Origin: JBDRGX01 sp043817485 [NCBI: bacterium]
GTDB taxonomy: Bacteria; JBDRGX01
DNA: 14,421 nt
Direction of reading: 5' to 3'
Assembly (NCBI GenBank): GCA_043817485.1
Contig: JBDRGX010000124.1
Coordinates: forward strand, 1 to 14,421
A program made the translations under genes and the position numbers. Position 1 is the stretch's first letter. Each line of letters opens with the position of its first letter. Below, piece after piece: positions 4,291-13,045 of this stretch. The notes under the pieces were generated by a model. The model ran no database searches. It saw nothing but the letters and a program-made list of their open reading frames with translations, and was not told the origin of the DNA.

Positions 4291-7191
4291 TTAAATATTT
4301 TTTTCTTCTAATATAGATAAATTGTTTAAAATATTGCCACATCTTTGACAAACATCATTATATTTTAAATCTTCACCAACACTTTTTTTATACATCCAAC
4401 ATCTATTACATTTTTCTCCAAGAGCTTTTTCTACCTTTATTTCAAAATCTTCTTGTTCTATTTCTTTTATTTCTGAAACTTGAAATTCTGAAACAATAGA
4501 TATATCTTCTAATATTTGTTCATTTTCCTTTAAGAAATTTTTAATTTCATCATTTTTAGGATATAAAATAATTTTTGCTTCTAAACTTTGACCAATTTGT
4601 TTGTTTTCACGAGATATTTCTAAAGATTTAAGTATTTTTTCTCTAATTTTTAACAAATGAACCCATTTTTCTTGTAAGTTTTTATCCATTATTTCTTGTT
4701 TAATTTTTGGCCATTCTGTTAAATGAATACTAATTGGATCATCTTTCTTTTTAAAAATATATTGCCAAACTTCTTCTGCTGTATAAGGAAGAAGAGGAGC
4801 AATAAGTTTTGCTAATGTAGAAATTATTTTATATAAAACAGTTTGAGCAGATTTTCTTTCTTGAGAATTTGCTATAGAAACATATAATCTATCTTTAAGA
4901 ACATCTAAATAAAAAGAACTTAAATCTAAAATACAATAATTTTTTATAAAATACATTACTTTATGAAATTCATAATTTTCATAAGATGAAGTAGTTTTTT
5001 TTATAAGTTCTTGTAATTCCATTAAAGCAAATTTATCAATTTCTTTCATTTCTTGAAAAGGAATTGAATCTGTTTCGGGATTAAAATCATACAAATTTCC
5101 TAAAATATAACGACAAGTATTTCTTATTTTTCTATAAATTTCAATAATAGATTGTAAGTTTTTTTCAGAAATACAAATATCTGTTGTAAAATCAACAGAA
5201 AAAAAATATAATCGCAAAACATCTGCACCATGTTTTTCAATAATTTCAAGAGGATTAACTACATTTCCTCTTGATTTTGACATTTTTTTCCCTTTTTCAT
5301 CTAAAATAAGTCCATGAGTGATTACCATTTTATAAGGAGCTTTATTTCGAGAAGCAACACTTGGTAAAAGAGAAGATTGAAACCAACCTCTATGTTGATC
5401 AGTTGCTTCTAAATATATATCTGCGGGAAATGTCAATTGATCATTTTCTTCTAATACTGCTGCCCAACTTACTCCAGACTCAAACCAAACATCAACAATA
5501 TCTAAGTCTTGAATAAATTCTTTTTCTCCACAAGAAGAACAAGTAATATTTGAAGGTAATAAATAAGAAGTATTTTCTTGAAACCAAAATTCAATCCCTT
5601 GTTTTTTAGTTTTTTCAATTGTTTTATTAATTGCTTCTATGTTAATTAATTCTTTTTCACAATTTTTGCAATGAAATACTGGAATAGGTGTTCCCCAAAT
5701 TCTTTGTCTTGATAAACAATAGTCTGGTCTTGTTTTTACCATATTAACAATTTTTTCTTCACCCCATGCTGGAATCCATTTTGATTGATGAATTGCCTCA
5801 ATCGCTTTTTCTTTTAAATTATTATGATTCAAATTCATAAACCATTGAGATGTAGCTCTAAAAATAATTGGATTATGACATCTCCAACAATAAGGATAAG
5901 AATGAGAAATATTTTCTGTAAACAGCAATATATTTAGTTGTTTTAATTTTTCAATAATCAATACATTAGTTTTAAAAACAAACATTCCTTGAAAATCTTT
6001 TACTTCATTCGTAAATTTTCCTTTACTATCAACAGGAACAATAATTGGAAGATTGTATTTTAAAGAAGCTGCATAATCTTCTTGTCCATGTCCTGGAGCA
6101 ATATGAACACAACCTGTTCCAACTTCATTGGTGATAAAATTAGCTAATATAACAGAAGAAGTACGATCAACAAGAGGATGTTGACAAACAACATGTTCTA
6201 AATCTTTTCCTTTTATGGTTTTTAAAATTTCTATTGGTTTTGAATTTTTTATCTGGGAGTGCCAAGAATCCTCTGTCTCTTGAGACAGGGATGAATTGGC
6301 ACTATTAATAATATATTTTCCTTGCAGAGAAGATCCATCTCCATTTATGCGAGGGAGATTCATTTTTGACAAAAATAATTCTACTAAATTTTTAGACAAA
6401 ATCCATTTTTCTTCTCCAATTTTTAAAACTACATATTCAAAATCTGGATGAAGAGCAACAGCAACATTTCCAAATAAAGTCCAAGGAGTAGTTGTCCAAA
6501 TAATTATATAAGTATTTTCAATAGGTATTAAATTTTTTCCATCTATTACTTTAAATTTAACATAAATAGAAGGAGAAATATGGTCAGAATGCTCTACTTC
6601 TGCTTCTGCTAAAGCAGTTTCACAAGTAGCACACCAATGAATTGGTCTTAAGCCCTTAAAAATATATCCTTTTTCAACTAATTCTTTAAAAATTTCAAGA
6701 ATTTTTGCTTCATAATGATAGCTTAAAGTTAAATAAGGATTATCCCATTCTCCTAAAACGCCTAATCTTTTGAATTGAGTTCTCTGAGTATCAACATATT
6801 TTAAAGCATAATCTTTACATTTATTTCTAATTTCTATTCGAGATAATTTATATTTTTCTTCGCCTAATTGTTTTAAAATAATATTTTCTATTGGCATTCC
6901 GTGACAATCCCATCCAGGAACATAACAAGTATTATAACCAGACATTGTTTTAAATTTAATAATTAGATCTTTAAGACATTTATTAAAAGCAGTTCCTAAA
7001 TGAATATCTCCATTAGGATAGGGAGGACCATCATGAAGAATAAATTTGGGCTTTTCTTTGCTTTTTTCTTTTATTTTTTGATATAAAACCCATTCTTCCC
7101 ACATTTTAAAAATTTCTGGTTCATTTTTAGATAATTGAGCTTTCATTTGAAATTTTGTTTTAGGTAAGTTAAGAGTTGGTGTATAATTCAC
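4291..7191 (-). CDS. ileS: Isoleucyl-tRNA synthetase with an extra in-frame insert
   Basis: The 966-residue class I synthetase charges tRNA-Ile and edits misactivated valine. The HIGH-type motif is HLGT (64-67) within PPYPNGDIHLGTAFNK, the WTTTPWTL and GHGQEDY blocks mark the CP1 editing domain, and KMSKS is at 636-640. The C-terminal zinc site has Cys928, Cys931, Cys948 and Cys951. A second cysteine set (HCKNC, CSSCG) lies around 507-555. Residues about 278-317, within the editing domain, have no counterpart in the family as I know it and correspond to a DNA insert with its own palindromes (6241-6360). The start is GTG after a GGGGG-type Shine-Dalgarno sequence, 18 nt downstream of the phosphorylase gene; dksA-like and lspA follow. 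Confidence 0.96.
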   Translation of the reverse strand: MNYTPTLNLPKTKFQMKAQLSKNEPEIFKMWEEWVLYQKIKEKSKEKPKFILHDGPPYPNGDIHLGTAFNKCLKDLIIKFKTMSGYNTCYVPGWDCHGMPIENIILKQLGEEKYKLSRIEIRNKCKDYALKYVDTQRTQFKRLGVLGEWDNPYLTLSYHYEAKILEIFKELVEKGYIFKGLRPIHWCATCETALAEAEVEHSDHISPSIYVKFKVIDGKNLIPIENTYIIIWTTTPWTLFGNVAVALHPDFEYVVLKIGEEKWILSKNLVELFLSKMNLPRINGDGSSLQGKYIINSANSSLSQETEDSWHSQIKNSKPIEILKTIKGKDLEHVVCQHPLVDRTSSVILANFITNEVGTGCVHIAPGHGQEDYAASLKYNLPIIVPVDSKGKFTNEVKDFQGMFVFKTNVLIIEKLKQLNILLFTENISHSYPYCWRCHNPIIFRATSQWFMNLNHNNLKEKAIEAIHQSKWIPAWGEEKIVNMVKTRPDYCLSRQRIWGTPIPVFHCKNCEKELINIEAINKTIEKTKKQGIEFWFQENTSYLLPSNITCSSCGEKEFIQDLDIVDVWFESGVSWAAVLEENDQLTFPADIYLEATDQHRGWFQSSLLPSVASRNKAPYKMVITHGLILDEKGKKMSKSRGNVVNPLEIIEKHGADVLRLYFFSVDFTTDICISEKNLQSIIEIYRKIRNTCRYILGNLYDFNPETDSIPFQEMKEIDKFALMELQELIKKTTSSYENYEFHKVMYFIKNYCILDLSSFYLDVLKDRLYVSIANSQERKSAQTVLYKIISTLAKLIAPLLPYTAEEVWQYIFKKKDDPISIHLTEWPKIKQEIMDKNLQEKWVHLLKIREKILKSLEISRENKQIGQSLEAKIILYPKNDEIKNFLKENEQILEDISIVSEFQVSEIKEIEQEDFEIKVEKALGEKCNRCWMYKKSVGEDLKYNDVCQRCGNILNNLSILEEKNI
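6241..6360 (-). repeat. In-frame palindromic insertion element within ileS
   Basis: This 120-bp, 40-codon segment separates LVELFLSKM from KPIEILKTIKG, which are nearly adjacent in ordinary IleS. It contains a two-tier palindrome at 6258-6303: agtgccaa pairs with ttggcact (6296-6303), and ctgtctc (6273-6279) pairs with gagacag (6282-6288), with a shared centre. A smaller inverted repeat, atctcc / ggagat, lies at 6337-6342 and 6354-6359. The DNA is visibly more GC-rich than the rest of the gene. The encoded peptide is hydrophilic, rich in Ser, Asn and Gln. This looks like Rickettsia palindromic elements, which insert in frame into housekeeping genes; membership of a repeat family cannot be shown from one copy. 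The exact borders are approximate. Confidence 0.6.
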
Positions 7192-7209: not shown

Positions 7210-8023
7210 TTAATATTTTGCTATAAAATTTTTTAATAATTTTGAAAGTTTAGGTTCAGTTTCTTTAGATACTTTTACCACTTCTTGAAAATTAAGTGGT
7301 TTTAAATTATCTGGTAGACAAATATCTGTAATACAAGAAATTCCTAATACATTTAATCCAATATGTTTAGCAGCAATTACTTCAGGAACTGTTGACATTC
7401 CAACTGCATCTGCTCCAATTAAACGCAAAAATCTATATTCAGCTGCTGTTTCCAAATTAGGACCAGTAACTCCGATATAAACTCCTTTTTGAATTTTTAT
7501 TTTTTCATCTAAAGCTACTTTTTCTATTAAAGTAATTAAATCTTTATTATAAGTATTAAACATATCTGGAAAACGAACACCTATTTCTTCATCATTAGTA
7601 CCAATAAGAGGATTTATCCCCATAAAATTTATATGATCTGTAATTACCATTAAATCACCTAAGGAAAACAACGGGTTTAATCCACCAGCAGCATTAGAAA
7701 CAATTAGCGTTTTTACACCCAGGGATTTCATTACATAAATAGGAAAAACTATATCTTTTACACAATAACCTTCATAATAATGAAATCTTCCTTGCATAGC
7801 AATTACATTTTTATTTTCTATTTTTCCAAAAACTAATTGATTTTGATGAGTTTCTACAGTAGAAGTCAAAAAATATGGAATATCTTTATAAGAAAGCGTT
7901 TTTTTTTTCTTTTATTTCATCAGCCAATGATCCTAATCCAGTACCTAAAATAATAGCAATTTCTGGTTTTATATCAATTTGATTTATAATATATTCATAA
8001 GATTTTTTAATTTTTTCTTTCAT
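7210..8023 (-). CDS. Purine nucleoside phosphorylase, split by a frameshift in an A10 run
   Basis: The family catalyses phosphorolysis of purine nucleosides for base salvage. Translation from the ATG at 8023 (AAGGA five bases upstream) gives MKEKIKKSYEYI... with the phosphate-binding ILGTGLGSLAD, then stops at 7886-7888. The rest, from the AAA/ACG junction to the stop at 7210, lies in another frame and holds QGRFHYYEGY, SNAAGGLN, GPNLETAAEYR and GADAVGMSTVPE. Removing one A from the ten-A run (7899-7908) restores a 270-residue protein, the normal length for the trimeric PNP family. The downstream part alone could only start at TTG 7869 and would lack the phosphate loop. Where human PNP has Asn243, this protein has Asp (position 233 after correction). 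It heads the ileS operon. Confidence 0.85.
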
Positions 8024-8041
8024 TATAATCCTTTTGTTCCC

Positions 8042-8320
8042 AAAAAACGAAATATTGGTAGAATCGATTGAAAATTAATATATCATGCCTACGGCATTTG
8101 TTATTATGTGAAAATAATTTTTTTTACCGATTATTGTCCCGATGGGACATTTATGGAATAATAATTATTGATAAAGAACATAAACTAATTCATTCCGTAG
8201 AAACGAGATATTGGTAAAAACGAAACAAATTTGAATGACCAAAATACAAATGTTCAAAACAAAATTCAATTTTATTATTTTTTTTTAATATCCCATAGGG
8301 ATATAATATTGGTAAAAAAA
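8042..8320. repeat. Intergenic cluster of dispersed repeats and short GC hairpins
   Basis: The 584-nt divergent spacer (8024-8607) contains no supported gene. It carries three small hairpins: ATGCC-tac-GGCAT (8085-8097), TGTCCC-gat-GGGACA (8135-8149) and ATATCCC-ata-GGGATAT (8288-8304). Around them the core ATATTGGTA recurs at 8052, 8209 and 8307, with an inverse-like ttaccgat at 8125. A module at 8191-8220 matches 13001-13030 at 27 of 30 positions, and the following 8221-8273 resembles 12891-12943. This is the layout of REP/BIME-type palindromic repeats. The remainder (8418-8590) is low-complexity AT-rich DNA. Confidence 0.6.
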
Positions 8321-9578: not shown

Positions 9579-10631
9579 TTGTTTGGGATAAGTGGTGGAG
9601 AATTACTTGTTATTTTATTTTTAGGGTTACTTCTTTTTGGTCCTCAAAAAATACCTCAAATAGCTAAAATTGTTGCTAAAATACTTAATGATTTAAAAAA
9701 ATCTACTGATCAAATTAAAAAAGACATTATGGAAAATGAACATTTAAAACAAATTCAAAATAATACTTATGATATAAAAAATCAAATAGAAAAAAGTATT
9801 TACAAAGAAGAAAAAGAACCATTTATAAATGAAAAAGAATATTTAAAACCAAAAGGAGAAAAATTTATGAGAAAAAAAATAATAATTGGAAATTGGAAAA
9901 TGAATAAAAATATAGAAGAATCTTTGAAATTAGTAGAAGAATTAAATCAAGAATTAAAAAATGAAAATGAAATAGATATAGTAATTTGTCCTCCTTTTAC
10001 ATCTCTTTTAGAAGTAAAGAAAAAATTAGAAAATAGCTTTATTGAATTAGGAGCACAAAATCTTTTTTGGGAAGAAACTGGAGCTTATACTGGAGAAATT
10101 TCTCCAGTAATGTTAAAAGACATTGGTTGTAAATATGTTATTATTGGACATTCAGAAAGAAGAATGTATTTTAATGAAACTAATGAAATGGTAAATAAAA
10201 AAATTAAAGCAGCATTAAAAAAAGATATTATTCCTATTATGTGTGTAGGTGAAAATTTAGAACAAAGAAAAAATAACGAAACTTTTTTTGTAATAGAAAA
10301 ACAACTTGAACAAGGACTTTTAGGCATAGAATTAGAAGATCTGGAAAAAATAATTATTGCTTATGAACCTATTTGGGCAATTGGTACTGGAGTAGTAGCA
10401 ACAATAGAACAAGCCCAAGAAGTTCATTCATTTATTAGAGAAAAATTATCTAAAATAGCTAATTCTTTTATTGCAGAAATAATAAGAATTCAATATGGAG
10501 GAAGTGTAACTCCAGAAAATATACAAAATTTAATTACTCAAAAAGATATTGATGGAGCATTAGTTGGTGGAGCAAGTTTAAAATCCACATCTTTTATTTC
10601 CATTATTAAAAATACTAAAACAACTTTTTAA
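9579..10631 (+). CDS. TatA/TatB-type translocase subunit fused in frame to triosephosphate isomerase
   Basis: One uninterrupted 350-codon frame encodes two families. Residues 1-50 are a TatA/B protein of the twin-arginine translocase: a short membrane helix (GELLVILFLGLLLFGP), the FGP hinge, then the amphipathic helix QKIPQIAKIVAKILNDLKKS. Residues 51-96 are a charged Lys/Glu-rich tail typical of TatA/B C-termini. Residue 97 onward is complete triosephosphate isomerase. The start is TTG at 9579, supported by GAGAGG six bases before it. No stop codon separates the halves, so readthrough would tether an isomerase to the membrane. An internal ribosome site and ATG at 9867 allow free isomerase as well. 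The likely history is loss of the tatA stop codon in an operon; a sequencing error is the main alternative. Confidence 0.8.
   Translation: MFGISGGELLVILFLGLLLFGPQKIPQIAKIVAKILNDLKKSTDQIKKDIMENEHLKQIQNNTYDIKNQIEKSIYKEEKEPFINEKEYLKPKGEKFMRKKIIIGNWKMNKNIEESLKLVEELNQELKNENEIDIVICPPFTSLLEVKKKLENSFIELGAQNLFWEETGAYTGEISPVMLKDIGCKYVIIGHSERRMYFNETNEMVNKKIKAALKKDIIPIMCVGENLEQRKNNETFFVIEKQLEQGLLGIELEDLEKIIIAYEPIWAIGTGVVATIEQAQEVHSFIREKLSKIANSFIAEIIRIQYGGSVTPENIQNLITQKDIDGALVGGASLKSTSFISIIKNTKTTF
9853..9858 (+). promoter_or_regulatory. Internal Shine-Dalgarno site for tpiA
   Basis: AAGGAG stands eight bases before ATG 9867, exactly where a free triosephosphate isomerase would begin. It shows that an independent tpiA start is retained inside the longer fused frame. 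Confidence 0.75.
9867..10631 (+). CDS. tpiA: Triosephosphate isomerase (nested start within the fused frame)
   Basis: The 254-residue enzyme interconverts dihydroxyacetone phosphate and glyceraldehyde 3-phosphate in glycolysis and gluconeogenesis. Catalytic residues are all visible: Asn9 and Lys11 in GNWKMN, His95 in IGHSERR, and Glu167 in AYEPIWAIGTG. The phosphate-binding loops YGGSV (210-214) and GALVGGASL (230-238) are intact. The length is typical of the bacterial enzyme. The ATG at 9867 has its own AAGGAG, so this is probably the main translation start even though the frame stays open upstream into tatA. rpmF follows 29 nt downstream. Confidence 0.95.
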   Translation: MRKKIIIGNWKMNKNIEESLKLVEELNQELKNENEIDIVICPPFTSLLEVKKKLENSFIELGAQNLFWEETGAYTGEISPVMLKDIGCKYVIIGHSERRMYFNETNEMVNKKIKAALKKDIIPIMCVGENLEQRKNNETFFVIEKQLEQGLLGIELEDLEKIIIAYEPIWAIGTGVVATIEQAQEVHSFIREKLSKIANSFIAEIIRIQYGGSVTPENIQNLITQKDIDGALVGGASLKSTSFISIIKNTKTTF

Positions 10632-12870: not shown

Positions 12871-13045
12871 AAAATCCGAATATCGAAATTCGAAACAAAT
12901 ATGAATGACAAAAATACGAAACCCAAAACAAATTTTCAATTTTCAATTTAAAATAAATGCAAATGTTTCTACTAATATAAATAAAAAAACAAAGATAATT
13001 CGTTCCATAGAAATGAGATATTGGTAAAAACAAATATCGAATTTG
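12871..13045. repeat. Repeat-rich spacer between fabH and thi4
   Basis: The 344-nt gap 12806-13149 has no supported gene. It begins with AT-rich filler and contains cgaaacaaatatgaatgac (from 12891), matching 8221 onward. A module at 13001-13030 is nearly identical to 8191-8220, including gagatattggtaaaaa. Several tcgaa/ttcga units (12877-12896 and 13035-13042) give local symmetry. The two modules occur in the opposite order to the 8191-8273 copy. I see no CTGAGA-type element that would indicate a TPP riboswitch before thi4. Confidence 0.6.

What the first reader, a model, noticed from the sequence alone, without database searches (positions are those of the whole stretch)
6241..6360. Palindromic 40-codon element inserted in frame in the IleS editing domain
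The insert interrupts a region where ordinary IleS proteins run nearly straight from LSKM-like to IEILKTIKG-like sequence. It has higher GC than its host gene and contains a 46-bp two-tier palindrome (6258-6303) plus a second small inverted repeat. Its length is a multiple of three and it has no stops. This mirrors Rickettsia palindromic elements, which are mobile repeats tolerated inside essential proteins. If it is dispersed in this genome, it would be a comparable element in another lineage.
Basis: partly seen in the sequence, partly recalled or inferred. Interest (0 to 1): 0.62.

Follow-up and report, generated by a model that had tools for sequence, protein, structure and literature searches.

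The report
Palindromic DNA insert inside isoleucyl-tRNA synthetase
An unidentified low-GC bacterium carries a 38-codon, hairpin-forming piece of DNA inside the editing domain of an essential enzyme; it looks like the translated repeat elements known from Rickettsia, but whether it recurs in its own genome could not be checked.

Summary
Confirmed: the IleS gene (4291-7191, minus strand) carries 38 extra in-frame codons (6235-6348). At that place none of 78 aligned IleS of other bacteria has more than 9 residues, and none of 97 Omnitrophota IleS more than 2. Inside lies a 46-bp imperfect palindrome (6258-6303), the strongest hairpin of the window. Synonymous codon choice does not explain it: 0 of 2000 recoded versions fold as well. 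AlphaFold2 gives a confident IleS fold; its 26 residues below pLDDT 50 lie in the insert.

Best reading: a palindromic repeat of the Rickettsia-palindromic-element kind, landed in frame and tolerated as a floppy loop. The decisive test, further copies in the same genome, could not be run (genome not held); the window has no second copy. Support is by analogy: two Omnitrophota genomes have other palindromic repeats in frame in the same IleS domain, with 39 and 4 further places in their genomes, one absent from a relative with 85% identical IleS. An RPE-7 in Rickettsia IleS is in print (PMC3767692). Probably a new member of a known kind.

The parts
4291..7191 (-). ileS, isoleucine--tRNA ligase, 966 aa, GTG start, apparently intact apart from the insert
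6235..6348 (-). in-frame insert of 38 codons (residues 282-319) in the CP1 editing domain, absent from the other IleS aligned; borders uncertain by a few codons
6258..6303 (.). 46-bp imperfect palindrome: 8-bp outer stem, interior loop, 4+6 bp inner stem
6238..6243 (+). TTTTGA, left copy of a 6-nt direct repeat around the insert; weak target-duplication candidate, chance-level
6364..6369 (+). TTTTGA, right copy of the same direct repeat

Best explanation
A short hairpin-forming repeat element (of the RPE / REP-in-gene / MITE kind) inserted in frame into ileS and has persisted because it encodes a polar, flexible loop that leaves the editing and synthetic domains intact. Shown: the extra 38 codons, their absence from the other IleS aligned, a palindrome at DNA level not explained by the protein, a predicted disordered loop in an otherwise confident fold. 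Inferred: arrival as one piece of DNA, mobility by an enzyme encoded elsewhere, no function for the host. The element's own ends, its copy number and its mobiliser are unknown. The palindrome (46 bp) alone is not a multiple of three, so the element, if one, is longer than the palindrome or came with a small duplication.
For: At the insert's place none of 78 IleS of other bacteria has more than 9 residues and none of 97 Omnitrophota IleS more than 2. Palindrome beyond chance: 0 of 2000 synonymous recodings and 0 of 60 codon shuffles, 0 of 200 dinucleotide shuffles. The palindrome lies wholly inside the insert. GC3 of the insert 26% against 10%. AlphaFold2 mean pLDDT 90.8; all 26 residues under 50 are in 288-310 and 312-314, inside the insert. 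Analogues of the same kind in the same domain: G056 (66-bp palindrome, 39 further places as a lower bound, with in-frame copies in an AddB-like helicase and an M16 peptidase) and G022 (perfect 20-bp arms, 4 further places, no match in relatives G097 and G206, and absent from the IleS of G097, which is 85% identical). Published precedent: RPE-7 in Rickettsia IleS (PMC3767692); REPs in tRNA synthetase genes of other bacteria (PMC3733652).
Against: No second copy in the 14.4-kb window. No significant relative in 384 Omnitrophota genomes (two candidates scored per genome): 253 have some match at E 1 or better, the best at E 6e-4 for one genome and outside the palindrome; one 42-nt match of 76% (G416) spans most of the palindrome at E 0.06 per genome, which chance gives many times over in 384 genomes. 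No GTAG or CGTC tag. The analogues are other elements at other positions of the domain. The hairpin scan is no clean detector: of the three IleS genes with a larger excess than the window one is the G022 insert, while L133's hairpin lies in ordinary sequence and L080's was not looked into; the G056 element is not among the top 15, and the best hairpin of that gene lies elsewhere.
Confidence: 0.6

Rival explanations
1. The loop is an ordinary lineage-specific expansion of the editing domain, and the hairpin is kept as an mRNA structure, for instance to slow ribosomes or to steer mRNA decay while the domain folds.
For: The hairpin is strong in the coding strand (-33.7 against -22.2 +/- 3.3 for 120 nt, 0 of 200 shuffles as good) and synonymous recoding destroys it, as selection on RNA structure would predict.
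Against: It lies within the domain, between a helix and a strand, rather than at a domain boundary; none of the other aligned IleS has the stretch, so there is no conservation or covariation to support an RNA function; the complementary strand folds equally well.
Confidence: 0.15
2. An ordinary insertion (slippage, local duplication, captured fragment) whose palindrome is coincidental or arose by template switching at one place, without any dispersed element.
For: Insertions in IleS occur without strong hairpins: L134 (18 aa), L122 (16 aa) and the purine-rich 50-aa stretch of L092. No second copy seen in the window.
Against: The strength of the palindrome is beyond codon and dinucleotide shuffles, and no parental duplicate lies within the window.
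Confidence: 0.2
3. Assembly artefact: a hairpin or chimeric piece joined into the gene.
For: pnp next door is split by a frameshift, which may be a sequence error, so the assembly may not be perfect; no reads were available.
Against: The reading frame is kept exactly through 114 nt, with no stop; a chimera would do so only by luck.
Confidence: 0.05

Closest known systems
Rickettsia palindromic elements (RPE), including RPE-7 in Rickettsia isoleucyl-tRNA synthetase (144 bp in R. japonica RJP_0691, Table 1 of PMC3767692, passages read)
   Same: Palindromic, about 100-150 bp, in frame in conserved genes including this very enzyme; encoded fragments reported in solvent-exposed places, as a flexible loop is predicted here
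   Different: Other lineage; no sequence comparison with RPE was made; dispersal not shown for the window; the place of RPE-7 within IleS was not compared
REP elements with GTAG or CGTC tags, some inside genes such as tRNA synthetases (PMC3733652, passages read)
   Same: Short palindromes, sometimes inside protein genes
   Different: No GTAG or CGTC tag at the palindrome; copy number unknown
66-bp palindromic repeat of Omnitrophota genome G056, in frame in its IleS (L081/L106)
   Same: Hairpin element in frame in the IleS editing domain; other copies in frame in other genes
   Different: Different sequence and different position in the domain; dispersal shown there, not here
Palindromic repeat of Omnitrophota genome G022 in IleS (L102)
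   Same: Perfect palindrome in frame in the same domain, with an empty site in a relative
   Different: Different sequence, about 17 aa longer than the relative, near residue 217 rather than 282-319

Membership tests
Rickettsia palindromic elements (RPE) | Palindromic, long stem-loop, 105-146 bp (PMC2229807, passages) | tested here: inconclusive
   114-nt insert with a 46-bp palindrome, z -5.2; but only part of the insert is palindromic and the element's own ends are unknown
Rickettsia palindromic elements (RPE) | In frame inside conserved protein genes | tested here: met
Rickettsia palindromic elements (RPE) | Many dispersed copies in the genome | not testable with these tools
   Genome not held; none further in the window
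Rickettsia palindromic elements (RPE) | Sequence likeness to an RPE family; host a Rickettsia | not tested
   No RPE or Rickettsia sequence was fetched; the host's lineage is unresolved
REP elements (GTAG/CGTC) | GTAG or CGTC tetranucleotide at one end of the palindrome | tested here: not met
   Neither within the 19-nt stretches at both ends, on either strand
REP elements (GTAG/CGTC) | RAYT transposase in the genome | not testable with these tools
   Genome not held
MITE | Terminal inverted repeats at the element's ends and target-site duplication | tested here: inconclusive
Isoleucyl-tRNA synthetase | Match above the curated cut-off and IleS fold | tested here: met
   941 bits against a cut-off of 621; best PDB match 8c9e, TM 0.89 by query length

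The most novel reading that the evidence does not exclude
The editing domain of IleS is a recurrent landing or tolerance place for unrelated palindromic repeats in Omnitrophota-type bacteria: the window, G056 and G022 carry three different palindromes there (and G023 a non-palindromic dispersed repeat), independently of the RPE-7 reported in Rickettsia IleS. If so, protein-coding palindromes are a widespread way in which bacteria build new loops into essential enzymes, and the inserts may tune editing.
Probability: 0.25. Interest if true: 0.6.

Novelty: new member of a known kind. Interest (0 to 1): 0.42.

Why it matters
Translated palindromic repeats are best known from Rickettsia and Wolbachia (passages of PMC3767692). 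Finding the same kind of event, in the same enzyme, in deep-branching uncultured bacteria would show that selfish repeats repeatedly add material to essential proteins, and the G022 and G097 pair offers an empty-site comparison with which the effect on enzyme activity can be tested.

Tried and rejected
Own genome: not held, so copy number could not be counted. Phylogeny: IleS identity is at most 51% to anything in the tree. The tree groups the window with the Omnitrophota rows, G012's among them, and one Brocadiia MAG at SH-aLRT 87, not starred, while its nearest rows by path are L085, L086 and L088 from the Bacillota-type search, and its make-up departs from the model; so the tree does not settle the lineage. 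The order pnp-ileS-dksA-lspA is shared with Omnitrophota loci, with a PNP 54-61% identical beside ileS in 5 of 20 fetched regions. I call the lineage Omnitrophota-like, not Omnitrophota. Elusimicrobiota were considered and could not be sampled. Second inverted repeat: rejected as chance. Target-site duplication: rejected as unproven; taking the TTTTGA-bounded stretch as the element would also leave the loop some 4 aa shorter than in relatives (my reading). Palindrome in IMG/VR contigs: 13 stretches with an exact match to a half-palindrome pattern, none with the full pattern. Insert peptide in 384 genomes: no match, which shows little for want of a positive control. G023 insert: a short purine-rich dispersed repeat with a weak fold, so not counted as a palindromic analogue. 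Literature: the listings (several cut short: 8 of 14, 15 of 18, 8 of 1,094 and 8 of 10 shown) show no report of protein-coding palindromes in Omnitrophota; beyond listings I read only the passages named.

Full report
What is there. The window (25.7% GC) holds glgB, a DUF2934 protein, pyrE, lspA, a dksA/traR-type protein, ileS and pnp on the minus strand, then a TPR protein, tatA, tpiA, plsX, fabH and thi4 on the plus strand (pyrE and fabH named by recall from their sequences, the others from family hits). IleS is 966 aa and scores 941 bits against the NCBIfam ileS model (cut-off 621).

The insert. In an alignment with 78 of the 80 IleS loci found in public genomes (L005 and L045 were too short), residues 282-319 of the window protein have next to no counterpart: the others have at most 9 residues in these columns (L009, then L013 with 8 and L015 with 5; all others 2 or fewer). 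In 97 IleS genes of Omnitrophota genomes (of 100 loci; L123, L124 and L137 gave no usable gene) the most is 2. Insertions of 12 or more residues in columns filled in under 15% of the rows occur in 6 of 98 sequences, window included; six of the eight stretches lie at reference residues 221-356, roughly the CP1 editing domain (its limits recalled). That count misses the L102 insert, which falls in better-filled columns. Two short PDB chains of isoleucyl-tRNA synthetase (editing-domain constructs by recall) match on either side of the insert: 1wny best at 206-273, 1wk8 best at 321-434.

The palindrome. 6258-6303 forms a hairpin on either strand. In RNA terms it is the strongest 60-nt hairpin of the window (plus strand). 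Keeping the protein and drawing codons from the gene's own usage gives -9.8 +/- 2.0 kcal/mol against -23.9 for the real coding strand, 0 of 2000 as good; shuffling the codons of the whole gene, 0 of 60. Among 113 IleS genes its excess over its own codon shuffles ranks fourth. The first, L102, proved to hold an inserted palindrome. The second, L080, was not looked into; the third, L133, and the fifth, L120, have their hairpins in ordinary coding sequence. The G056 gene, which does hold an inserted palindrome, is not among the top 15, and its best 60-nt hairpin lies elsewhere. So strong hairpins alone neither prove nor exclude an element; the coincidence of hairpin and insert is what matters.

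Protein. AlphaFold2 on a 43-row alignment (the window and 42 of the 72 usable loci, picked by hand for spread) gives mean pLDDT 90.8; all 26 residues under 50 are in 288-310 and 312-314. The fold is that of bacterial IleS (8c9e, TM 0.89, 42% identity). The insert is rich in serine (9 of 38, against 5.6% in the rest). It is a flexible loop in the model; nearness to the editing site was not measured.

Copies. The genome is not held. The window has no second copy. In a sample of 384 Omnitrophota genomes, with two candidates scored in each, 253 have some match at E 1 or better, as chance would give; none is convincing. Nothing in phage or plasmid records.

Analogues. G056 (3.0 Mb, drawn from the phylum of G001, the genome of the Omnitrophota locus L014) has in its IleS a 66-bp palindrome (-35.9 kcal/mol for 76 nt) with 43 matching rows in its genome, which I count as the IleS copy plus 39 further places after taking out three listed on both strands; only 40 of 207 candidates were scored, so this is a lower bound. 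Of 12 copies fetched, those in long open frames lie in IleS, an AddB-like helicase (residue about 345 of 857, frame cut by the end of the locus), an M16 peptidase (about 508 of 981) and an 888-aa frame without a firm family; a transglutaminase-like frame has its copy near residue 38, perhaps before the true start; the other seven lie in frames of 157 aa or less. Its IleS has another dispersed repeat further on, with 16 other places. G022 has a perfect palindrome with 20-bp arms in frame near IleS residue 217, 4 other places in its genome, and no match in the related genomes G097 and G206; G097's IleS is 85% identical and lacks it. These show that the kind of event proposed for the window happens in the same domain of the same enzyme in other bacteria. 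They do not show it for the window.

Literature. Passages of PMC3767692 list RPE-7, 144 bp in R. japonica, in isoleucyl-tRNA synthetase of R. japonica, R. conorii, R. africae and R. felis, and state that encoded fragments lie in solvent-exposed areas. Passages of PMC2229807 and PMC3733652 describe RPE properties and REPs inside genes, tRNA synthetases included. One founding RPE paper was asked for and is not held; the founding papers are known to me from reference lists only.

Verdict. New member of a known kind, in a lineage where the searches named found no report of it.

Noticed in passing
window 7210-8023, minus strand: pnp is split: its N-terminal part (MKEKIKKSYEYIINQIDIKPEIAIILGTGLGSLADEIKE...) lies in another frame, the break falling at a run of A's. 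A frameshift, a sequence error or slippage.
   Followed up: partly
window 8040-8320: Intergenic stretch with short palindromes (ATGCC-TAC-GGCAT, TGTCCC-GAT-GGGACA, ATATCCC-ATA-GGGATAT) and three copies of ATATTGGTA (8052, 8208, 8306; a fourth at 13018; none on the other strand): REP-like repeats unlike the IleS palindrome.
   Followed up: partly
window 9579-10631: The tatA frame runs on into tpiA without a stop, although tpiA keeps an AGGAG a few bases before its own ATG at 9867.
   Followed up: no
L081 / L106 (G056): One IleS gene with two different dispersed repeats in frame; other copies of the first in AddB-like and M16 peptidase genes.
   Followed up: yes
L102 (G022) 9830-9895 against L094 (G097): Perfect palindrome in frame in IleS with an empty site in a relative; a third relative (L104, G206) has a partial likeness there.
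   Followed up: partly
L092 (G023) 915-1080: 50-aa purine-rich repeat (RRQKTEDRRQ type) in frame in the IleS editing domain, with short likenesses elsewhere in that genome.
   Followed up: partly
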